The translations under genes and the position numbers were made by a program. Shown piece by piece: positions 15,987-28,498 of a DNA stretch of 42,620 nucleotides. The DNA is from an uncultured Candidatus Saccharibacteria bacterium (GTDB lineage: Bacteria; Patescibacteriota; Saccharimonadia; Saccharimonadales; Saccharimonadaceae). The stretch's first letter is position 1. Every line of letters begins with the position of its first letter. The notes below the pieces were generated by a model. The model searched no databases, was not told where the DNA came from, and worked only from the letters and a program-made list of their open reading frames with translations. The stretch spans positions 1 through 42,620 of the forward strand of contig CAMJXP010000003.1 in NCBI GenBank assembly GCA_946409745.1, read 5' to 3'.

Positions 15987-17120
15987 ATGGATATAGTTTT
16001 AGGTGTGATGGGGGTAATAATAATTATTTTGTTAATCGTTTTGATTTTTAAGAAGTCGGCTCCGGCGCAGTCGGCTGATTTTAAATCAATGGAAGAGCGG
16101 CTGATTCGTATGGAAGGTCAGGTTAAGGAAATTAATCCATCGATTGATCGTAACTTCCGGGAGAACCGCAAGGAAATCGCGGAGAATCTCGAAAGACTCC
16201 AAACTGGCAATGAGAAGAAGCTTGAGGAAATGCGCGAGACGGTCGATGAAAAGCTTAAAGCATCGGTTGAAAAGCGTTTTAACGAAAGCTTTAAATCGAT
16301 TTCTACCCAACTCACTCAGGTCTATCAAGGTCTCGGCGAGATGAAGAGTATGGCGACCGAAGTTGGTGACTTAAAGAAGGTTATGGAAGGCGTTAAGACT
16401 CGTGGTATTTATGGTGAAGTTCAGCTTGGCTCGATTATTAGTGATATGTTAAACAAATCCCAATATGAAGAGAATATCGCCACTAAACCAGGCTCAAGTG
16501 ACCGTGTCGAATTTGCGATTAAGATGCCAGGGAAAGAGGACAATGTTTATCTTCCGATTGACTCTAAATTCCCAGTCGAGAATTATTCGCGTTTAATTGC
16601 CGCTTACGATGCCGGTAATAAGGCCGATATTGCAACTTACCAGAAAGCACTCGCAAATGATGTTAAGGAGCAAGCTAAGAAGATTTCGACTAAATATATC
16701 GAACCACCAATGACGACCGAGTTTGGAATTATGTTTGTGCCGACTGAATCGCTCTATGCGGAGATTATCCGAATTCCAGGTCTTTCTGATGAGATTCGTA
16801 AGAAACAAAAGATTACGATTGCTTCACCATCAACGCTTCCCGTGATGCTGAATGGCCTTGTAATGGGCTTTAGGACGCTGGCGATCGAGAAACGTTCAGC
16901 GGATGTTTGGCAAACACTCGGCGCCGTTAAAACTCAGTTTGGTAAGTTTGGTGAATTACTTGAGGGCGTACAAAAGAAACTTCAGGAATCAGCGAATAAG
17001 ATTGAATCGGCGAGAACCACTTCCCGCCAGATTGAGCGTAAATTAAAAGATGTCGAAGAATTACCAGAAACTGAATCAGTTAAATTAATAGGAGAAGTAT
17101 CCAATGAGTCTGAAGAGTAA
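15987..17120 (+). CDS. rmuC: DNA recombination protein RmuC
   Basis: N-terminal TM, coiled coil, RGIYGEVQLGSIISDML and LPIDSKFPVENYSRL RmuC core. Confidence 0.93.
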   Translation: MDIVLGVMGVIIIILLIVLIFKKSAPAQSADFKSMEERLIRMEGQVKEINPSIDRNFRENRKEIAENLERLQTGNEKKLEEMRETVDEKLKASVEKRFNESFKSISTQLTQVYQGLGEMKSMATEVGDLKKVMEGVKTRGIYGEVQLGSIISDMLNKSQYEENIATKPGSSDRVEFAIKMPGKEDNVYLPIDSKFPVENYSRLIAAYDAGNKADIATYQKALANDVKEQAKKISTKYIEPPMTTEFGIMFVPTESLYAEIIRIPGLSDEIRKKQKITIASPSTLPVMLNGLVMGFRTLAIEKRSADVWQTLGAVKTQFGKFGELLEGVQKKLQESANKIESARTTSRQIERKLKDVEELPETESVKLIGEVSNESEE

Positions 17121-18621
17121 GCTCACCCGCAAAAACCGTGATTATATCGTATTATTCATCCTAAATGCCGCTGGTATGATTTTGGAGCTCGTGGCTTCGA
17201 GATTAATGTCACCATATTTTGGTAATAGCAATTTCGTCTGGACAGCGATTATCGGGATTATTCTCCTTGCTGGCAGCCTTGGCAATATCCTTGGTGGTAA
17301 GATCTCAAACAGACGGAATGCTCGTTACCTTACCATTATGTTACTATTATTTGCTGCAATTTATCTGGCGGTTACACCAATGGTTGATGCGCCGATTCTA
17401 TCAGCCATCAAGTCTGGTAATAATGGCGTCCAGTTTTCATCGGTGATTTCAAGTATCGTATTCTTCCTGGTGCCGGCTACGATTCTTGGTATTATCACGC
17501 CGATTATCATGAAGGAACATATTGCAAGCAGTAAAGATCAGGGTAAGGAATCTGGTAGAATTACGGCAATAATTGCGATTGGTAGCCTGCTTGGTACTTT
17601 TGCTGGTGGTTTCTGGATTATTCCAGCCATTGGCACGAGAATGATTTTCAATGTGCTCGCAATTACAATTATCTTAATGGTGCCGTTCTTTATGCCAATT
17701 ACCGACACCAAGAGTATTAAACTTAAATGGCGCTATTTCTTCGCAATGCTCCTTGCAACGGTCGTGACGATTGCTTCCATTATCACTGTAAACAGCATGA
17801 CTAAGAACGTCGAAGGCTCAATCAGTATAGACACTGAGTATGGTCGTGTAATTGTAGAAGATGGCACCTATGGAGATGACGAAGTGCGCTATTACAAGCA
17901 AAGTGGCGCTTATTCTTCGGCAACTTTCTTATCTGAAAATAAAAAATACGATCTCGTCTTTAATTATCTGAAGAAATATGACGAAATGTTTAAATTCCTA
18001 AACGTGAAGAGTACTGCGATGATTGGTGGTGCTGCTTATCAATATCCGAAGTATTTCATTTCGCATTTCAAAGATAAATCCATGGATGTGATTGAGATTG
18101 ATCCGATGTCAACGGAAATTGCGAAGAATTATTTCTTCCTAGATGATTTAGTAAAAGATTACGATACCGAATCGACTGGGCGACTAGGTCTATATAATGA
18201 TGATGGGCGCATTTTCCTTGCTGATTCGACTAAGAAGTATGATGCAATTCTAAACGATGCCTTTTCAGGTGAAGTGCCAGTAGGGACTCTTGCGACCGTC
18301 GAAGCGGCTAAGATTATTAAGAGTCGCTTAAATAAAGATGGTGTTTATATGTCGAATGTACTCGGCGCGGTTAGTGGGCATCGTGGTAAGTTCCTGCGCG
18401 CTGAGGTGAAGACCTTAAAGAAAGTCTTTAGGCATGTTTATGTGATGCCAGTTTATGAGAACGCTACCAGTAATCAATATGTAAACTGGATGGTGATTGC
18501 TACCGATAATGATAATTACGTGCCTAAAACTGTCGATATTGAATTAACCGAGAAGGACATAACCTTGACTGATGACTACTGTCCAATTGATAGTTTGATT
18601 ACAACTGAATACTTTGATTAG
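17104..18621 (+). CDS. Fused MFS/spermidine synthase-like membrane protein
   Basis: Multi-TM N-terminal half, then a spermidine-synthase-like Rossmann half (VIEIDPMSTEIAKNYFFL, DDGRIFLADSTKKYDAILNDAFSGEVPVGTLATVE). Confidence 0.88.
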   Translation: MSLKSKLTRKNRDYIVLFILNAAGMILELVASRLMSPYFGNSNFVWTAIIGIILLAGSLGNILGGKISNRRNARYLTIMLLLFAAIYLAVTPMVDAPILSAIKSGNNGVQFSSVISSIVFFLVPATILGIITPIIMKEHIASSKDQGKESGRITAIIAIGSLLGTFAGGFWIIPAIGTRMIFNVLAITIILMVPFFMPITDTKSIKLKWRYFFAMLLATVVTIASIITVNSMTKNVEGSISIDTEYGRVIVEDGTYGDDEVRYYKQSGAYSSATFLSENKKYDLVFNYLKKYDEMFKFLNVKSTAMIGGAAYQYPKYFISHFKDKSMDVIEIDPMSTEIAKNYFFLDDLVKDYDTESTGRLGLYNDDGRIFLADSTKKYDAILNDAFSGEVPVGTLATVEAAKIIKSRLNKDGVYMSNVLGAVSGHRGKFLRAEVKTLKKVFRHVYVMPVYENATSNQYVNWMVIATDNDNYVPKTVDIELTEKDITLTDDYCPIDSLITTEYFD

Positions 18622-19286
18622 AAACCACGAATCTTCTCGAATGGGAAGAGTCTCATAATCACTGGGCCAACGATACGGCAATAAGGAATGGTGCCGAGAC
18701 CATTTCGTGAGTCCCAAGAGTTAGAGCCTTCGCGGTTATCACCGGAAACGAATAGTTCACCATCTGGAACTGTGACATCAACTTCGCCACTAGTATATTC
18801 TTTTGGGCCATCATCGGTTGCGTGACGCCATTCTTTATCATAGTTAAAGCCATCTGGATATTCATCATTATAGATGGTCATAATACCGGCTTTTACAACT
18901 ACGCGTTCGCCCGGGAAAGCAATAACGCGCTTAATAATGTATTGATCAGCGACATTTTCCGGAACAGTGCAAGTCATTGGTTTAACGACGCCTTGTTCTT
19001 TGTATTTTTCGACGGACTTTTCATTTTCATTCATAAAGACGATGATTTGACCACGTTCCGGAATATATTCTTGCCCTATAAAGTGGGCCCAAGAGACGGC
19101 AGCGCGGTTCACAATGACGCGATCGTCGTTCTGCAAAGTATTCTCCATACTGACGCCCACGACATTATATGAGCGATAAATGTAAGTATTCAAGAACAAT
19201 GTGCCGAGCACAATGGCAACGACAAAGCCAGCAAGACTCAAAATATCTTTTAATAATGGATGTTTTTGAAAAAATGTTGGTTTCAT
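18618..19286 (-). CDS. lepB: Signal peptidase I
   Basis: VGVSMENTLQNDDRVIVNR, YIIKRVIAFPGERV, VSGDNREGSNSWDSRNGLGTI. Confidence 0.95.
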   Translation of the reverse strand: MKPTFFQKHPLLKDILSLAGFVVAIVLGTLFLNTYIYRSYNVVGVSMENTLQNDDRVIVNRAAVSWAHFIGQEYIPERGQIIVFMNENEKSVEKYKEQGVVKPMTCTVPENVADQYIIKRVIAFPGERVVVKAGIMTIYNDEYPDGFNYDKEWRHATDDGPKEYTSGEVDVTVPDGELFVSGDNREGSNSWDSRNGLGTIPYCRIVGPVIMRLFPFEKIRGF

Positions 19287-19343
19287 GAAAAATATTATAG
19301 CACTTTTAAGCTTATATTAAATAATTTGATATAATATAAGGGT

Positions 19344-20126
19344 ATGGCAGATTTCATATTAGCAAGAAAATCTAGGAATATCGCAAGCAATATAGTGCAT
19401 ATCTTTTTAAATATCTTGCTTGGAATCTTAGCTGTTTTGATTACAGTCTTTAGTGCGAGCCCATGGCTTGGTATTTTACTAGTTTTAGTCTCGAAATGGC
19501 GTATTTTTGCAGTTCGCCGTCGCTATTTGTGGTTAAACCTTAAGTCTAATCTAGTTGATATTATTGTTGGCTTTAGCGTTGTCATTTTGGCCTATTTTGC
19601 TGGCCACTCACTTCTTCCAGTTGATTTCTTACTCATGGCGATTTATGTATTATGGTTGCTCGTGCTTAAACCTATGTCGTCAGAAGTCGCTACGCTTGCA
19701 CAATCCCTCGTAGCTGTGTTCTTGGGTATTTCGGCTTCGACGATTATGGCCGCAAGCCTTGATTCAATCATTACTGTCATACTAGCATTTCTGATTGGTT
19801 ATGCTGCGAGCCGTCACGTTTTAGCGCAAACTGGTGGACAGGATTTTACTCTTACGACCCTAGTTTGTGGTTTAGTGTTCGCCGAGATTGCTTGGCTTTG
19901 CAATTCTTGGTCGATTGTTTATACTTTCGGAAATACCGGTATTAGGATTCCGCAAGTTGCTATTATTTTGACAATTTTCGCCTTTATCTATAACTATGCC
20001 AGACAGGCAATGTATAAATATCAGGAAGATTTCAGATTCCGAGATATTTTAGGGCCCGTTCTGTTTGGTGTGGCGTTAGTGGGCATAATTGTAATTTGCT
20101 TTAGTAATCCAATATTTAATATCTAA
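19344..20126 (+). CDS. Hypothetical multi-pass membrane protein
   Basis: ORF with many hydrophobic segments; TATAAT 8 nt upstream. Confidence 0.7.
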   Translation: MADFILARKSRNIASNIVHIFLNILLGILAVLITVFSASPWLGILLVLVSKWRIFAVRRRYLWLNLKSNLVDIIVGFSVVILAYFAGHSLLPVDFLLMAIYVLWLLVLKPMSSEVATLAQSLVAVFLGISASTIMAASLDSIITVILAFLIGYAASRHVLAQTGGQDFTLTTLVCGLVFAEIAWLCNSWSIVYTFGNTGIRIPQVAIILTIFAFIYNYARQAMYKYQEDFRFRDILGPVLFGVALVGIIVICFSNPIFNI

Positions 20127-20135
20127 GGAGGTTAA

Positions 20136-21347
20136 ATGGATAATATTGAAGAGGGCAAGATTTCTGAAGTACCAAAACAAGATACTGCCGTAGTGGTTGA
20201 GCAACCTAAAGAGACTAGGGAACCAAGAGCTCGTAATACGTTTGCTACATTTCTCGCTACAATTGCAGTTTTGCTCGGTGCTGGTGGTTTGACATTTGGT
20301 GTGCTAGCTTATAATGAGGCACACAAGCCGCTTACCGTTTTATCAAGTGGTACGGATGGAAACTCAGCAAACTTCACGGAAGGCTCAATTGCCGACGTTG
20401 TGAGCAAAGTGTCTGACAGCGTTGTTTCAATTGTAACTTCTACCACTGGCAGAGATTATTATGGACGAACTTACGAATCAGGCGCTGCCGGTACTGGCGT
20501 AATTGTTTCATCGGATGGTTATATTTTGACCAATAAGCACGTTGCTGGCGATGCAAAGACTATTACGGTTGTGCTTCACGATGGCACGACGTATAATAAT
20601 GCACGACTCGTGGTCGTAGATCCACTTAATGATATCGCTTTTATCAAGATTGATGATGTTTCAGATCTCAAGGCGGCGTCTCTTGGCGATTCAAAGACAA
20701 TTACGGCCGGTCAGCAAGTGGTCGCAATTGGTAATGCGCTTGGGCAATATCAGAACTCAGTGACTTCTGGTATTATCTCTGGTACTGGCCGTTCATTAAC
20801 TGCAACCGATGGCTCTGGCACAATGTCTGAGAAGCTTTCGGATATGATTCAGACCGATGCTGCGATTAACTCAGGTAACTCTGGTGGTCCACTCATCAAT
20901 GCTGCAGGCGAAGTGATTGGTATTAATACTGCTACTTCTGCCAGTGGCGAGAATGTCGGCTTTGCGATTCCAATTGCCAGTGTCAAGGGTATGCTTTCAC
21001 AGCTTATTGAGAGTGGAAAAGCGGAGCGTGCTTATGTCGGTGTATATAGTGTCGACATCACTCCTGATTATGCAAAAGAAAATAATCTCCCTGTAACAAC
21101 TGGTACTTATATCTATAGCTCACAAGCTTATTCAGCGATTCTCAGCGGTAGTCCAGCTGCTAAGGCCGGTCTTCACGACAAAGATATCATCACGGCCGTA
21201 AATGGCGTAAAGATTGGCGCCGCTGGTTCGCTTTCAACTTTGATTGGTGAGTACAAGCCAGGCGACATTGTTTCACTTACCGTAATTCGCGATGGCAAAG
21301 AGATGGGTATCAAAGTTGAGCTTGCTGGCTATCAAGAAACAAAATAG
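20136..21347 (+). CDS. HtrA/DegP-type trypsin-like serine protease with PDZ domain
   Basis: TM anchor, TNKHVA, NDIAFIKID, TDAAINSGNSGGPL, C-terminal PDZ. Confidence 0.95.
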   Translation: MDNIEEGKISEVPKQDTAVVVEQPKETREPRARNTFATFLATIAVLLGAGGLTFGVLAYNEAHKPLTVLSSGTDGNSANFTEGSIADVVSKVSDSVVSIVTSTTGRDYYGRTYESGAAGTGVIVSSDGYILTNKHVAGDAKTITVVLHDGTTYNNARLVVVDPLNDIAFIKIDDVSDLKAASLGDSKTITAGQQVVAIGNALGQYQNSVTSGIISGTGRSLTATDGSGTMSEKLSDMIQTDAAINSGNSGGPLINAAGEVIGINTATSASGENVGFAIPIASVKGMLSQLIESGKAERAYVGVYSVDITPDYAKENNLPVTTGTYIYSSQAYSAILSGSPAAKAGLHDKDIITAVNGVKIGAAGSLSTLIGEYKPGDIVSLTVIRDGKEMGIKVELAGYQETK

Positions 21348-22126
21348 AGGATGAAGTTCCGGGTCTCGACTAGTTCGAGACCTTTTTTGTTACAGTATTC
21401 AATGATTTTTTGATGCTGGCTCGGGTCGGATTCAAGGATTAGGTGTTTAATATCTGGCCGTGCCGAGACTTGATTAATAAGCTCGTAGATTTGAGCTAGA
21501 CCGTCATTTGAGGCGTAGAGCGCTGTGAGCGGCTCGTATTCTAGACTGTCAAAATCTAGCCAATCCCAGGATTTGTCGACATACGGCAAGTTTGCCGCAA
21601 CGATATCAATGTTACGATCTAGCGCGTCGTTTAAGAGATCTGATTTTTGCAGAATGATATCGGAGTGGAGCTTAGTGCTATTCTTTTTTGCAACTTCAAG
21701 TGCCTTGTCGGAATTATCAATTGCAACTACCTTAGCCTTAGGGATTTCTAGTTTCAAAGTCGTAGCAATACAACCGGAACCAGTGCCCACATCGTAGATG
21801 ATTGGATAGTCGATATTCTCGGCGATTTTCTTAACTATATCGATAATGTCTTCGGTTTCTGGACGGGGAATTAAGACATTTTCGTCTACATAAAATTCGC
21901 GGCCATAGAACTCTTTGCTATTAATAATATAGGCAAGTGGCCTATTATTGGCGCGCTCGTTTAAGTAGTAATTTGCCTTTTCTTCTTCGACTTCGGTTAA
22001 ATCTCTGGTATCATGCGAGATTAGATAAGTGCGATCTTTCTCGCGAAGAATATTCAATAGAATTAATTCAGCATCAATATTCGGAACTTTGGTTTTGGCT
22101 TTTTCTAACCAGTTTGCGATATTCAT
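21332..22126 (-). CDS. prmC: Release factor N5-glutamine methyltransferase
   Basis: VLIPRPETEDIID, VGTGSGCIA, AANLPYVD (NPPY-like); adjacent to prfA. Confidence 0.94.
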   Translation of the reverse strand: MNIANWLEKAKTKVPNIDAELILLNILREKDRTYLISHDTRDLTEVEEEKANYYLNERANNRPLAYIINSKEFYGREFYVDENVLIPRPETEDIIDIVKKIAENIDYPIIYDVGTGSGCIATTLKLEIPKAKVVAIDNSDKALEVAKKNSTKLHSDIILQKSDLLNDALDRNIDIVAANLPYVDKSWDWLDFDSLEYEPLTALYASNDGLAQIYELINQVSARPDIKHLILESDPSQHQKIIEYCNKKGLELVETRNFILYFVS

Positions 22127-22127
22127 A

Positions 22128-23171
22128 TTAGGCTTCGGCCTTCAATTCACGTTCGTGCAAGGTTAATTCATGGATTAAATCATCAATGTCGCCATCCATG
22201 ACAGCTGGAATGTTGCTTCTGGAATAATGAATGCGGTGGTCGGTCACACGATCCTGTGGGAAGTTATAGGTGCGAATCTTTTCTGAGCGGTCACCGGTAC
22301 CAATAAGAGATTTGCGGGCTTCCGATGCATTCTTGATTTCTTCTTCTTTTTTACGCTCTAAAAGTCTCGAGCGAAGCACGTTCATGGCCTTGATACGGTT
22401 CTGCTGCTGAGAGCGTTCGTCTTGCATTGCCACTACTAGCCCCGTCGGTAGGTGCGTAATACGGACGGCGGAGTCAGTCGTGTTGACGCCCTGACCGCCA
22501 TGGCCACCGGAGCGGTAGATGTCAATGCGTAGGTCTTCTGGTTTGATTTCTAAATCTTGTTCGGAGGCTTCCGGAAGTACGGCCACAGTAACAGTAGAAG
22601 TATGAATGCGACCTTGCGATTCGGTCACTGGAACACGTTGTACGCGATGAACACCACCTTCAAATTTCAGCTTGCCGTAAGCTTCATCGCCACTGATTTT
22701 GAAGATAACTTCTTTCATACCGCCGGCTTCGTTTTCATTTTGAGACATTAGCTCTGCTTTTAAACCATGACTCTCGGCATATTTCACATACATGCGGTAA
22801 AGCTCGCCGGCAAAAAGGGAAGCCTCGTCACCTCCGGCGCCGGCACGAATCTCAATAATAGCCGGTTTGTCATCTTCTGGGTCGCGTGGGATCATTAATT
22901 CTTCAAGCTCAGCTTTGGATTTCTCGATTTCTTCTTTCAGATTCTTTACGTCTTCTCTTGCAATTTCACCAAGTTCCGGATCATTTACGAGTGCTTCGGC
23001 TTCTTCTAGATTGGCGTTCATTTGCGTGATTTTAGCATCTAAATCAATGATTTCCCGGAGCATACTTCCGCGCTTACTTTTAACAGCAAAATCAGGGGAA
23101 TTGTAAGCGTCTGGCTTCGCGAGGAAGTCTTCTATCTCTTTTAATTCGTCTTTATATTTCTGAATATCCAT
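22128..23171 (-). CDS. prfA: Peptide chain release factor 1
   Basis: [46 protein letters not shown]. Confidence 0.98.
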
Positions 23172-23193
23172 GCTATAATTATAACATAAATTT

Positions 23194-23270
23194 GGATCTT
23201 TAGCTCAGTTGGCTAGAGCGTACGATTCACATTCGTAAGGTCACTGGTTCGAGCCCAGTAAGATCCACCA
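23194..23270 (+). tRNA. tRNA-Val (CAC)
   Basis: Cloverleaf GGATCTT ... AAGATCC-A-CCA; anticodon stem TACGA/TCGTA with loop TTCACAT. Confidence 0.95.
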
Positions 23271-23648
23271 CGACGAAATTATGGACATTTTGTAGAAAAA
23301 ATGCCCATTTTTTATTTGTTTTCTCTGTTATTTTGAACTTTAGCGTTTGTTATGATTTTTGTTATGTAAACTGACACGTTTTACATTAAGTGTCACATTG
23401 TTTCTGACCACACAATAATGGCTTGTTAAAGCCCCTCATTCTCGTAATTTATCCAAGGAAAATACACCAATTATAGAGAATAATTGTCTCAGTGGAAACT
23501 TTTTATCGTATAAAATGGGCTTATCGTATAGAATAGGAAAAAATGTATCGTTTATGGCTCAGGTTCACATCTGACATTCTTTACGAAGCAATATAGCAAG
23601 TGCAGCCTGAAGACTGATTGTCCCTGTTCGTTTCCGTGTATACCCGCT

Positions 23649-23675
23649 ACCGCTGGAGCTTTTTACTCCAGCGGT
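23649..23675. other. Perfect 10-bp hairpin downstream of the FISUMP gene
   Basis: ACCGCTGGAG-CTTTTTA-CTCCAGCGGT, about 96 bp beyond the stop of the 23772..26315 gene; could be a terminator or a DGR-associated hairpin. Confidence 0.75.
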
Positions 23676-23771
23676 TTTCCGCACCCTTTGTGCTTTGGCT
23701 CAAGGGCGCTCTATTCCGGGGAGTCGAGTACGGGGAAGAAAAAAAGGAACGAAGGAAAAGGGCGTCACAAC

Positions 23772-26315
23772 CTACTTCAGTACGCACCGTATAGCGCTCC
23801 CGTAGTAGCGGCCGAAGCTATTGACCGGACTGACATTCGACGTATTGAGGTACAGGTAGAACATATCCGAGATATTGATCCTAGTAGAAGACCAGTAGTA
23901 GCCGTAGGACCCCTGATCCGCCGGAGCGGAACCGCTGAAGTAGCCAGCGAGAGCGAAAGCAGCACCGGAATTCTCAATTGATGCCCTCATAAGAGCGTTG
24001 GAGTTATACTCGGCGTAAAGAGCCTGGAATTCTCCGGAGCTTCCGCCGGTTGGGAGACGCCATCCGGCAGGGCAGATATCGTAGCTGGCATTGTTGCTGT
24101 TACTGCTACCTGAAATGGTCCCGGCAGATGCGGCGTAGTAGTTATAGAGAGTACCGTAGGCAGTGCCGGAAGTAGCATCCGTACCGGAGACGCTGATGTA
24201 TTCGCCAGCATCGTAAGTTCGGGAGCCGGATGTTTTCTTCCAGCTATTGAAGGTGGATGCGGTAACAGTGGTGGATAGGTTTGTATTAGTACTAGTGAGA
24301 TCAGTAGTGAGTGTGGTACGGCCAAGATCGAGGTTCTCTGCCATCCAAATATTGCCGTCTTTAAGTTTGGTCACGGCATAGGTTTTGTTGTCGCGGTTAT
24401 CGATAAGATTATAGGTAGTGCTATCTGCCATAGATGCGAGAACGGTGGCTCTATCCGTAGAGGAAAGGTCTTTAAAATCCTGCATATAAGTGAGGTCTGA
24501 GATTGTTTTCGTTTTCAGTACGCACCGTATAGCGCTCCCGTAGCTCCTGCCGTTGCTATTGGCCGGATAGACAGGCGACGTATTGAGGCGCAGGTTGTAC
24601 ATACCCGTGTCATTCCTCCTAGTAGAAGACCAGTAGTAGCCGCTCGACCCCTGATTCACCGGGGCAGCACTGAGGAAGTAGCCAGCGAGAGCGAAAGCAG
24701 CTCCATTCTCGGTAATAGGTGCTCTCATAAGAGCATTGGAATTGTATTGTGTGTAAAGGGCTTGGAATTCTCCGGAGCTTCCGCCGGTTGGGAGACGCCA
24801 TCCGGCAGGGCAGATATCATACTGGGCGTTACTGCTATTGCTGCTACCAGAAATGGTTCCGGCAGAAGCAACATAATAGTTGTAAAGAGTGCCGTAGGCT
24901 GTACCGGAAGTGGCATCCGTACCGGAGACGCTGATGTATTCGCCAGCATCATAGGCAGCGGAGCCGGATGTTTTCTTCCAGCTATTAAAAGTAGACGCAG
25001 TTACTGTGGTGGAGAGGTTCGTATTAGAGCTGGTGAGATCTGTAGTGAGCGTAGTACGGCCAAGATCCAAGTTTTCCATCATCCAGCAGTTGCCGTCATT
25101 GAGGCGCTGGATGGTATAAACGTGTCCGTCGCGAGTGTCGTAGACATTTGAGGCTGTAGACGTACAATCCGAAGCGTCAAGGTTTTGTATTGGTTTAGCG
25201 GTATTAGCGACAATCCTTGAACTTGATACACTTAGCGGAGTGAACGTGTAATCAGTAAGGGTATATCCACTACTTAGAGTTGCCTTAATTTTAAGCGGTG
25301 TTCCATAAGATAGATTCACGGTACCGTTATTCGCAACAGTGTTCCCGTTTACGGTCATTTCGGTGATTCCGGTACCGTATTGGATTTGAAGTGTATTTGT
25401 ATCAAGCTCTGCAATTGGTGTAATAAGGCTGCTGCCGTCCCCAACGGTATATGTAGTACTGGCGGAAGTGGCACTCGCGACCGAGCCGTTCTGCCCTGGA
25501 TTCCAACGCACAAACGATGATCCGTCCATGGGCGTTGCAACTAGTGCATAAGACTGTCCGGATGTGAGATTTGCAACCGTGCATCCGGCGGTCGTGGTAC
25601 ACTCTACGCCGTTAAGCGTTACTTTAGAAATCCCGGCAGTCGGAGCAATGGTGACGCTATATAGCATCGTAGCGGTAAGAGTATATTTTACCTTCCCGGC
25701 ATAGCTTCCGGCAGCCTGTGAATTTGAAACATTTGCTTTATATGTTGCCAGTATTGCCGAGCCCGTAGTGCTGTCTGTTTCACCGTTATATGAAACAATT
25801 CTGGCAGTAGTTGCAGGGACCGCGTGATAAGCATCATATCCCGTGTCAATGGTAAGATTGGCCGGAAGATAAGATGAAGTGTCCTTTGCAATCTTCATGG
25901 ACCAGTTTGATACGTTGCCGGTCGCCGTGCCGGTCGGAATTGTACTGTTGACACTGGAGTTTATGAGATCTGTATTACCGGTTGTGTCATTGGTATACCC
26001 CACCGCATAAATCTGGTGATCTGTTGAATTTGGACATTTGGTCGTGATTTTGGTTGAACCGATGTCTTCAGCAGAAGTGCCGGGATTTAATGCTATGGAA
26101 TGAACTGTCGTGACAGTCGAGGAAAAAGAGCAGCTTTCTGATTCCGCAGATAGCAGTTCTGCGTCCAGAACAGCGAAGCTGTCGGACGGGAAATATAACC
26201 CGGCCGTGATAAAAGCCATGATTAACAAAATAGCACCCAGAATCATTCTTTCCGGATAGTATTGCAAAAAAGCAATCACCCTGCCATATTTTGTTCTTTT
26301 TACATGTAAGGCCAT
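23772..26315 (-). CDS. Membrane-anchored surface protein with two tandem FISUMP-type C-terminal domains; putative DGR target
   Basis: N-terminal TM, CSF...C-type extracellular module, Bact-repeat-like region, then duplicated DGNxWMxENLDLGRTTLTTDL ... YDICPAGWRLPTGGSSGEFQALY ... GYYWSSTR ... YGSAIRCVLK. Confidence 0.9.
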   Translation of the reverse strand: MALHVKRTKYGRVIAFLQYYPERMILGAILLIMAFITAGLYFPSDSFAVLDAELLSAESESCSFSSTVTTVHSIALNPGTSAEDIGSTKITTKCPNSTDHQIYAVGYTNDTTGNTDLINSSVNSTIPTGTATGNVSNWSMKIAKDTSSYLPANLTIDTGYDAYHAVPATTARIVSYNGETDSTTGSAILATYKANVSNSQAAGSYAGKVKYTLTATMLYSVTIAPTAGISKVTLNGVECTTTAGCTVANLTSGQSYALVATPMDGSSFVRWNPGQNGSVASATSASTTYTVGDGSSLITPIAELDTNTLQIQYGTGITEMTVNGNTVANNGTVNLSYGTPLKIKATLSSGYTLTDYTFTPLSVSSSRIVANTAKPIQNLDASDCTSTASNVYDTRDGHVYTIQRLNDGNCWMMENLDLGRTTLTTDLTSSNTNLSTTVTASTFNSWKKTSGSAAYDAGEYISVSGTDATSGTAYGTLYNYYVASAGTISGSSNSSNAQYDICPAGWRLPTGGSSGEFQALYTQYNSNALMRAPITENGAAFALAGYFLSAAPVNQGSSGYYWSSTRRNDTGMYNLRLNTSPVYPANSNGRSYGSAIRCVLKTKTISDLTYMQDFKDLSSTDRATVLASMADSTTYNLIDNRDNKTYAVTKLKDGNIWMAENLDLGRTTLTTDLTSTNTNLSTTVTASTFNSWKKTSGSRTYDAGEYISVSGTDATSGTAYGTLYNYYAASAGTISGSSNSNNASYDICPAGWRLPTGGSSGEFQALYAEYNSNALMRASIENSGAAFALAGYFSGSAPADQGSYGYYWSSTRINISDMFYLYLNTSNVSPVNSFGRYYGSAIRCVLK
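23775..23925 (-). other. Putative DGR variable repeat, copy 2
   Basis: Encodes GYYWSSTRINISDMFYLYLNTSNVSPVNSFGRYYGSAIRCVLK; A-to-N-like differences from copy 1. Confidence 0.75.
23775..24360 (-). repeat. FISUMP domain copy 2 (C-terminal), tandem repeat of 24513..25098
   Basis: Aligns without net length difference to 24513..25098 (offset 738 bp). Confidence 0.9.
24513..24663 (-). other. Putative DGR variable repeat, copy 1
   Basis: Encodes GYYWSSTRRNDTGMYNLRLNTSPVYPANSNGRSYGSAIRCVLK. Confidence 0.75.
24513..25098 (-). repeat. FISUMP domain copy 1, tandem repeat of 23775..24360
   Basis: See above. Confidence 0.9.
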
Positions 26316-26471
26316 TCTGCTTATATTTTACTACACAAAAAAGACCATGCAATTATTGACATCCTCATCATTCGTTGTATAACCATTTTTGCATATCTTT
26401 ATTGTGGATTTACGACAGATATGGTAAAATCTACTCACTTCGAAATAGATATGAACTGCCAGGAGAAGAGA

Positions 26472-27176
26472 ATGCTTTACTATGTCTTTTCAGATTCCCA
26501 CGGCTTTAGCGGCAATATGCTGGCCGTTCTCCAGCAGAAGTTGCCGGACGAGCTGATATTCCTTGGAGACGGGGAATTAGATCTTCTCGATATTAAGAAG
26601 AAATACCCGGATCTCGTCATACATAATGTGCGCGGGAATTGCGACGTTGCATCAACGGCAAGGCTTCAAATGGTCATAAGGTGTGGCAGGAAAAAGATCT
26701 TCTTATGCCATGGACATACGATGGTTGTAAAGGATTCGCTCGATACATTGATCGACAATGCTTTCGCAGCAGAAGCGAACGTGGTTCTGTTCGGCCATAC
26801 GCATATACCATATACCGGCTTTTCTATGGCGATGGATATAATGAATCCGGGCACTATTGGAGAATGCCAGGACCCGACATATGGGATTCTAACTATTGAT
26901 GGATTCAGAGTAGAAACGAAGATAATCCATCTAAATTCATTACAAAAAGAATGGACATTGATACGGCTTTTTGATGGAATTGAGGCGTCCGGGAGTCCGG
27001 CGTGTCAAAAAAACGGTCCAAAAAAAGTGATGTGTCAAAAAACCTTATCGTATAAAACGAAGGTTTTTACATCAAATGGGCGTCAGTTTTACAAGCATAA
27101 GCACAATAAAAGTCCCGTAGGGCTCTTTTTGTTATTATGTGTTTTATCTAATAAACGTTGCGCCCTTCTTTTCTAG
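26472..27176 (+). CDS. YfcE/MJ0936-like metallophosphoesterase with anomalous C-terminal extension
   Basis: FSDSHG, FLGDGELD, VRGNCD, LCHGHT, FGHTHIPY, MNPGT motifs. AGGAGAAG SD before ATG 26472. Tail after ~26945 looks non-coding. Confidence 0.8.
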   Translation: MLYYVFSDSHGFSGNMLAVLQQKLPDELIFLGDGELDLLDIKKKYPDLVIHNVRGNCDVASTARLQMVIRCGRKKIFLCHGHTMVVKDSLDTLIDNAFAAEANVVLFGHTHIPYTGFSMAMDIMNPGTIGECQDPTYGILTIDGFRVETKIIHLNSLQKEWTLIRLFDGIEASGSPACQKNGPKKVMCQKTLSYKTKVFTSNGRQFYKHKHNKSPVGLFLLLCVLSNKRCALLF

Positions 27177-27641
27177 CATTTGGAAGTATTTATCTTTCTT
27201 TTTCTCGAACATAGTTCCGATAGCTTTCGTATTTACGATAACTTTGAAACCATTTTCAATTGCACCAAGCGCAGTCAAAGCGACACAACCGCCGCCATCA
27301 ACGCCTACTACTTCTACGGCATCAATATTATTCTTCTGTAAGTATTCAGGCAGTTGCGGATTAGAAAAAGCATCACCCTTGTATTTATCAAAAACCGCTT
27401 CTCCTTTTCTAATCAAGTCTTCGGCCAATTCAGCGCTCTTGTCGCAATCAAAAATATGCACCGGTGCAAGTTTATTAATGAAGTTTTTCTTCATGAGATT
27501 GCGAATATAGACGACATTCTCACTGGCTTTTATTTCTTCATTAACTTTATTGATGATATCACTATCGTATTTAAAGAATTCTGCGTGGTTCTTACCAACA
27601 CACGCTTCTTGCATATCAATTACAAGTAATGCTTTGCTCAT
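27144..27641 (-). CDS. Isochorismatase-like cysteine hydrolase
   Basis: ALLVIDMQ, D...K motif, VVGVDGGGCVALTALGAI. Confidence 0.85.
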   Translation of the reverse strand: MSKALLVIDMQEACVGKNHAEFFKYDSDIINKVNEEIKASENVVYIRNLMKKNFINKLAPVHIFDCDKSAELAEDLIRKGEAVFDKYKGDAFSNPQLPEYLQKNNIDAVEVVGVDGGGCVALTALGAIENGFKVIVNTKAIGTMFEKKKDKYFQMLEKKGATFIR

Positions 27642-27642
27642 T

Positions 27643-28275
27643 TTATGCCTTTCTAATTGGATGCCTTATTACAGTTTTAAGTTTACCTGCGTCACATTTT
27701 CTAGGATCGCTTAGATAAATCTCGTGGTGATATCTAGTATCTGCTATATCTAGCTTGTAGCCGTTATCTTCGGCGAATTTATGCATTAACTCAACTGTTG
27801 CCGGTTCGTCGTCGTAACTACCAATATGCATACATTGAACGCATAAACCCTCGTCATAGGTTAGAAACTCTATTCTAGAGAAATCTTGTTTCTTTTTCTT
27901 GGTAGCTTCTTCTATTGCCCAGTCAAAATCAGCTTTCGTCACAAAGTCTGGTAAACGGATAATGGAAATAAAGTTTAGCCGCTCTTTATGGTTATAGTCT
28001 ATGCCATCTTTATCGTCTTGCCACCAAAAACCTTCTAGCGGCGGTACGACATATTCGAAAAATCCATCAATTTTATGGTCACCTTTATAGCTCATTTTTA
28101 TCGTGTAGGCGACTCCGTAAAGTAGTCCAAGCGTATTCTGATAATCGCCGTTTTCATCGTTAGGGTTACCTTTGCCTCTAACGGCGATATAATTCATCTT
28201 CGGAACATTGATAATACTTGGCTTATTTTTTGGTAAGTAGTATTCTTTGTATTCTTTTTTAAAATCAAAAGCCAT
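27643..28275 (-). CDS. GyrI-like small-molecule-binding domain protein
   Basis: MNYIAVRGKGNPNDENGDYQNTLGLLYGVAYTIKMSYK ... VVPPLEGFWW. Confidence 0.8.
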   Translation of the reverse strand: MAFDFKKEYKEYYLPKNKPSIINVPKMNYIAVRGKGNPNDENGDYQNTLGLLYGVAYTIKMSYKGDHKIDGFFEYVVPPLEGFWWQDDKDGIDYNHKERLNFISIIRLPDFVTKADFDWAIEEATKKKKQDFSRIEFLTYDEGLCVQCMHIGSYDDEPATVELMHKFAEDNGYKLDIADTRYHHEIYLSDPRKCDAGKLKTVIRHPIRKA

Positions 28276-28498
28276 GAATTATCCTTTAGATAATTATATC
28301 ATTTAGCGTCAACTATTCTTCGAGAGCAAATTCTTTTAATCGTCGACAGATGTCCCTTTGTACACAAATAAAACCTGGTAAATTAAGCCCCACCATTATT
28401 AAGTGGATGAAAACCTAGCCGATGCAGGGAAGTGCGAAGCTTGATAAAAACCAATGAGGTGCTAAAATATAGTGTAATAGGAAGAAAAAGGAGAAAAA

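What the first reader, a model, noticed from the sequence alone, without database searches (positions are those of the whole stretch)
23772..25098. Two tandem DGR-type variable repeats in one surface protein
In coding orientation the two FISUMP copies are equal-length tandem repeats. Their last ~120 bp show 14 variable codons: AGC/TAC, AGG/ATC, GAC/ATC, ACG/TCG, GGT/GAT, TAC/TTC, AAC/TAC, CGC/TAC, CCT/AAT, TAT/AGT, GCC/GTC, AAC/TTC, AGG/CGC, AGC/TAC. All 14 are nonsynonymous. By hand count, 21 of 23 nucleotide differences fall at codon positions 1 or 2, and 18 of 23 have A in one copy. The other five fit independent changes from A. Interspersed stretches are identical (GGCTACTACTGGTCTTCTACTAGG; CTCAATACGTCG; TACGGGAGCGCTATACGGTGCGTACTG). 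Upstream in the same domains, many differences are silent. This is the pattern expected if both segments were rewritten by adenine-specific mutagenic retrohoming from an AAY-rich template. DGRs are established in CPR bacteria and commonly diversify C-terminal C-type-lectin/FGE-like folds; two diversified domains in one polypeptide is the notable arrangement.
Basis: partly seen in the sequence, partly recalled or inferred. Interest (0 to 1): 0.92.

Follow-up and report, generated by a model that had tools for sequence, protein, structure and literature searches.

The report
Surface protein with two hypermutated domains
A gut Saccharibacteria surface protein has two neighbouring domains whose ends both look rewritten by one targeted-mutation system (a diversity-generating retroelement); the arrangement is real and recurs in sister species, but similar multi-site targets are already known.

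Summary
Gene 23772-26315(-) encodes 847 aa with two C-terminal FISUMP (PF09603) domains, and the end of each is a DGR variable repeat. Against it, repeat 1 is changed at 21/55 template A and 6/131 other sites, repeat 2 at 24/55 and 3/131 (p about 5e-8 and 9e-12). The repeats are longer than reported, one of the 14 codon pairs (AGG/CGC) is synonymous, and 5 of the 23 differences are not changes from A.

The G135 ortholog shows the same double pattern. In a third species (G052) one polypeptide carries two repeats that match that genome's own template (3/113 and 0/113 non-A differences), beside an RT. Two repeats per polypeptide written from one template is therefore well supported. FISUMP targets and several repeats in one ORF have published precedents, so this is a new member of a known kind.

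No RT, template or accessory gene was found in the window's own 78%-complete assembly, so current activity and the source of the machinery are inferred. A 98%-complete relative with a near-perfect repeat but no RT is the main open point.

The parts
23772..26315 (-). Target gene, 847 aa: hydrophobic N-terminal segment, repeat-type middle part, two C-terminal FISUMP domains
   Evidence: ORF; PF09603 E 1e-19, two stretches; TIGR02145 E 2.7e-25
24513..25148 (-). FISUMP domain 1 (internal)
23775..24410 (-). FISUMP domain 2 (C-terminal)
24516..24701 (-). Variable repeat 1 (internal): 21/55 template A changed, 6/131 other sites
23778..23963 (-). Variable repeat 2 (C-terminal): 24/55 template A changed, 3/131 other sites
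24514..24533 (-). Candidate homing initiator of repeat 1, GCTATACGGTGCGTACTGAA, coding AIRCVLK; the end of its match to the template
   Evidence: the role is inferred
23776..23795 (-). Same segment of repeat 2; here the match to the template continues about 50 bp beyond
   Evidence: the role is inferred
23725..23771 (-). 3' flank of repeat 2, also found 3' of the G135 template and of C-terminal repeats in G135 and G020
23194..23270 (+). tRNA-Val at the break in synteny next to the target gene
26421..27176 (+). Phosphoesterase-like gene; its homolog lies next to the template in G135
   Evidence: name from sequence inspection, no family search

Best explanation
The gene is a DGR target with two variable repeats in one polypeptide, one in each of two tandem C-terminal FISUMP domains. 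One AAY-rich template, with the same non-A sequence as the one in G135, was reverse-transcribed with errors at A, and the cDNA replaced the homologous end of both domains, independently. This diversifies residues at AAY codons, probably in a C-type-lectin-like binding site of a surface protein. Shown: the sequence signature, the template and RT in relatives, and the double arrangement in other species. Inferred: where the machinery of this lineage is (unassembled part, mobile element, or recently lost), the role of the coding AIRCVLK segment as homing initiator for the internal repeat, and the binding role.
For: Template in G135: 25 of 28 and 21 of 27 differences to repeats 2 and 1 lie at template A; Fisher 8.9e-12 and 4.6e-8. 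It lies beside an RT with the DGR SQ motif, an accessory ORF and a canonical target with 0/131 non-A differences. None of the non-A differences is common to both repeats. Ortholog in G135: third-position differences fall to 5/29 and 3/30 codons in exactly the two segments while first- and second-position differences rise. Marker codons are of one template type in both repeats here and of another type in both repeats of the ortholog. G052: two repeats in one ORF, 23/58 and 28/58 A sites and 3/113 and 0/113 non-A sites changed, with template and RT in the same genome. 96 of 174 congeneric genomes have a DGR RT relative; template/repeat pairs beside most RTs examined. The two repeats share no more A-site changes than repeats of unrelated genes do.
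Against: No RT, template or accessory gene in the own assembly. Nine non-A differences in the two repeats, six of them in repeat 1. No BPP-1-type hairpin near either repeat. No read-level evidence of current variation. Fold not confirmed.
Confidence: 0.93

Rival explanations
1. Fossil: the lineage has lost RT and template, and both repeats are frozen products of past retrohoming.
For: No machinery in G000; G051, 98% complete, also has a repeat but no DGR RT match and no template match. The first FISUMP repeat of the 1353-aa G135 protein looks decayed at non-A sites (16/116), so freezing does happen.
Against: Few non-A differences here (6 and 3 of 131) against saturated silent change elsewhere in the ortholog comparison, so any loss must be recent. 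The assembly is only 78% complete. It would still be a DGR product.
Confidence: 0.3
2. Only one repeat is a DGR target; the other got its sequence by duplication or gene conversion from it.
For: The domains are clearly duplicates. In G135's 1353-aa protein only one of three similar repeats fits template 1.
Against: Both repeats here differ from the template at different A sites; 9 of 13 co-mutated sites share a base, within the range for unrelated repeats, 3-13. Both segments show the signature between orthologs. G052 has two repeats that each fit its template.
Confidence: 0.05
3. Ordinary positive selection on loop residues of two duplicated adhesin domains, no retroelement.
For: Duplicated adhesin domains can diversify at exposed residues; most FISUMP pairs examined lack the signature.
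Against: The changes follow the adenines of a real template beside a DGR RT, and silent sites in the segments are conserved while silent sites outside are saturated.
Confidence: 0.01

Closest known systems
DGR targets with several variable repeats in one ORF: Thiohalocapsa PB-PSB1 DGR4/5 and Marichromatium purpuratum 984 (PMC10907252, PMC3521204)
   Same: Tandem domains in one polypeptide, each with a variable repeat; one template; supply in trans reported for PB-PSB1
   Different: Those are three CLec/FGE-type domains in conflict-system proteins of purple bacteria; here two FISUMP domains in a Saccharibacteria surface-type protein
DGR targets with Fib_succ_major domains in human microbiomes (PMC4159848)
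   Same: Same Pfam domain as the diversified part
   Different: In the protein described there the domain is a single one at the end of the protein
Multi-repeat DGRs surveyed in PMC6642488
   Same: 31 of 271 multi-repeat DGRs have several repeats in one target ORF
   Different: I did not find this clade named there
CPR (Patescibacteria) DGRs, clade 2 and others (PMC8144416)
   Same: DGRs are enriched in CPR, to which Saccharibacteria belong
   Different: I did not place these RTs on that tree; CPR clade 2 targets there typically lack recognizable domains outside the repeat

Membership tests
Diversity-generating retroelement (as target) | Template/variable repeat pair differing mainly at template A | tested here: met
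   With the template of a relative: 21/55 and 24/55 A against 6/131 and 3/131 other sites; within one genome for G052
Diversity-generating retroelement (as target) | Variable repeat inside a coding region, usually the C-terminal domain | tested here: met
   Repeat 2 is C-terminal; repeat 1 is internal, also in one ORF
Diversity-generating retroelement (cassette) | RT with (I/V/L)GxxxSQ motif | tested here: met
   In relatives: G135 RT IGNLTSQ; 48 of 50 motif hits in RT loci are SQ (motif definition PMC3521204)
Diversity-generating retroelement (cassette) | RT and template in the same genome as the target | tested here: inconclusive
   Not found in the 78%-complete G000; present together in G135 and G052
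Diversity-generating retroelement (cassette) | Accessory protein (Avd-like) | tested here: inconclusive
   325-aa ORF beside the G135 RT, no Pfam, NCBIfam or PDB match of note; not in G000
Diversity-generating retroelement (target) | IMH at the 3' end of the repeat, shared with the template | tested here: inconclusive
   20-bp shared segment GCTATACGGTGCGTACTGAA ends both repeats and the template; function not tested; no (GC)14 tract seen
Diversity-generating retroelement (BPP-1 subset) | GC-rich hairpin 4-34 bp downstream of the repeat | tested here: not met
   None after repeat 1; after repeat 2 only a 10-bp stem about 95 bp away, terminator-like. Described as required in a subset of DGRs (PMC3521204)
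C-type-lectin-like fold | Structural match of the variable domain | tested here: inconclusive
   AlphaFold2 model pLDDT 67, low in the repeat; no PDB match at E below 0.001
FISUMP (PF09603 / TIGR02145) | Score over the curated cut-off | tested here: met
   72 bits against 33.9; 90.1 against 41.65

The most novel reading that the evidence does not exclude
In this clade one nearly invariant template, on a mobile or only intermittently present cassette, rewrites many scattered repeats, several per polypeptide, in lineages whose chromosomes carry no RT; and the coding sequence of the conserved AIRCVLK motif itself serves as homing initiator, which frees variable repeats from the C-terminus.
Probability: 0.15. 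Interest if true: 0.68.

Novelty: new member of a known kind. Interest (0 to 1): 0.48.

Why it matters
Two independently diversified sites on one chain multiply the binding repertoire of a surface protein and could allow bivalent recognition; in Saccharibacteria, which live on other bacteria, host attachment is the obvious use (inference). Internal repeats also test how far cis elements beyond the stop codon are needed for homing, since C-terminal placement has been explained by that need (PMC8144416). This clade offers one template with C-terminal, internal and decayed repeats across many species.

Tried and rejected
Template, RT and accessory gene in the own genome: nothing found. Exact pattern of the repeat core in viral contigs: no match. 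A template of the second type in G135: not among 8 matches. Solved structure of the domain: none by sequence or fold. Gene conversion between the two repeats: sharing is no higher than among unrelated repeats. Duplicated tRNA end as an att site: none in the window. Other multi-FISUMP proteins of this genome on contigs C9 and C11 as further double targets: not among the pairs with the signature.

Full report
What is in the window. The window is the whole of contig C3 of a 637-kb, 44-contig, 78%-complete assembly. Its relatives are titled Candidatus Saccharibacteria, several from ruminant guts. Gene 23772-26315 on the minus strand encodes 847 aa with two tandem FISUMP domains at the C-terminus. 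The two copies align over 636 bp without gaps and lie 738 bp apart.

The observation. One codon pair, AGG/CGC, is synonymous. Measured against the template found later, five of the 23 are not changes from A: AGG/ATC position 3, GAC/ATC position 1, GCC/GTC position 2 and AGG/CGC positions 1 and 3. Upstream of the segment the copies differ mostly at silent third positions.

The template. Searching 174 congeneric genomes with the DNA of the second repeat gave close matches in G135, G051, G020 and G187. One of the G135 matches, on the minus strand of L116, is a template: 25 of its 28 differences from repeat 2, and 21 of 27 from repeat 1, lie at its own adenines. It reads AAFALAGNFNNAAPANQGSNGNYWSSTRNNDTNMYNLNLNTSNVNPANNNNRNNGNAIRCVLK. 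Beside it lie an RT of about 390 aa with IGNLTSQ and YVDD, a 325-aa accessory ORF and a FISUMP target whose repeat has 0/131 non-A differences. The best solved relative of the RT is a 328-aa reverse transcriptase, 8ub7, which I believe from memory to be the Bordetella phage DGR enzyme. Over 186 bp, repeat 1 has 21/55 A sites and 6/131 other sites changed, repeat 2 has 24/55 and 3/131. None of the non-A differences is shared by the two repeats, so nothing indicates that the template that wrote them differed from G135's at non-A sites.

Two repeats in one polypeptide. Three lines support it. First, the ortholog in G135 (L165, 77% identity): third-position differences run at 9-21 per block of about 30 codons over most of the gene but fall to 5/29 and 3/30 inside the two variable segments, where first- and second-position differences rise to 19. 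Second, concerted markers: the fixed codons of both repeats are of template type 1 here, while both repeats of the ortholog follow another type; no template of that other type was found in G135. Third, G052 has an RT 72% identical to that of G135, its own template next to it, and a 587-aa ORF whose two repeats differ from that template at 3/113 and 0/113 non-A sites and at 23/58 and 28/58 A sites. A scan of 143 domain pairs in multi-FISUMP ORFs gave the signature in six distinct proteins: the window gene, its ortholog, a G187 ORF, the G052 ORF, a G169 ORF and a 1353-aa G135 ORF. The G187 and G169 cases lack a template from their own genome and are weaker. The two repeats here share a base at 9 of 13 co-mutated A sites; pairs of repeats from other genes share 3-13, so copying between them is not needed.

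How it probably works. cDNA of the template replaces each domain end, and A-restricted errors change residues at AAY codons. Shown: the sequence pattern, and template and RT in relatives. Inferred: homing into an internal site. Internal repeats share with the template only up to GCTATACGGTGCGTACTGAA or slightly less, which codes for the conserved AIRCVLK end of the domain, whereas the C-terminal repeats share about 50 bp more beyond the stop. No BPP-1-like hairpin follows either repeat (conditions in PMC3240598). The structure model is of low confidence in the repeat and matches nothing in the PDB significantly.

The missing machinery. No RT, accessory gene or template was found in this genome. 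In G135 the cassette lies next to a phosphoesterase-like gene homologous to 26421-27176; here that gene adjoins the target and no cassette is present. In G187, 96.5% identical over 15997-23270, synteny breaks right after the tRNA-Val and resumes near 28422, so the target lies in a segment that varies between close relatives. G051 is 98% complete, has no match to the DGR RT and no template match, yet has a repeat with 30/55 A and 1/116 non-A changes. If the machinery is truly lost, the loss is recent; otherwise the cassette sits in an unbinned or mobile element. I cannot decide between these.

Comparison with the literature. DGR targets with Fib_succ_major domains are known (PMC4159848). Several repeats in one ORF are known: 31 of 271 multi-repeat DGRs (PMC6642488), three tandem FGE paralogs in Marichromatium (PMC3521204), three tandem CLec domains in Thiohalocapsa, with activity in trans explored there (PMC10907252). 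DGRs are enriched in CPR bacteria (PMC8144416). A search for Saccharibacteria together with DGR gave five papers; I did not read them, and none of their titles or abstract openings describes this arrangement. The library lacks most subscription journals, so an earlier description cannot be excluded.

Verdict. The finding is a well-supported new member of a known kind. Open points are the source of the machinery for these orphan repeats and the internal homing site.

Noticed in passing
Genus of the window, 174 genomes: DGR RT relatives in 96 of 174 congeneric genomes, up to 4 matches each in one genome; most cassettes examined target FISUMP-like C-termini.
   Followed up: partly
L117:8319-8533 (G051): 98%-complete genome with an internal repeat at 30/55 A and 1/116 non-A changes but no DGR RT or template match; its RVT_1 hit has a QGCPTS motif and is not DGR-type.
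   Followed up: partly
window 23271-28421: Segment absent from G187 at this site although the left flank is 96.5% identical; it starts at the 3' end of a tRNA-Val. In G135 recombinase-like ORFs follow the same tRNA.
   Followed up: partly
L116:11381-12601: Transposase-like ORF beside the G135 cassette, at a break in synteny with window 26950.
   Followed up: no
L013 (G000 contig C9), ORF of 1608 aa: Protein with several diverged FISUMP domains and no variable-repeat signature, a stable counterpart of the diversified gene.
   Followed up: partly
L167 (G135), ORF of 1353 aa: Several FISUMP domains: one repeat fits template 1 (3/116 non-A), two others differ at 14-16/116, as if decayed or written from another template.
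   Followed up: partly
L116:7844-8818: 325-aa accessory ORF between target and RT without a family match; its C-terminal half may be an Avd-like helical bundle (impression only).
   Followed up: partly
L049, L051 (G012, G052): DGR cassettes whose targets end in a different domain (FWLLSP...GVRPAISL), not FISUMP; G052 so carries more than one kind of cassette.
   Followed up: no
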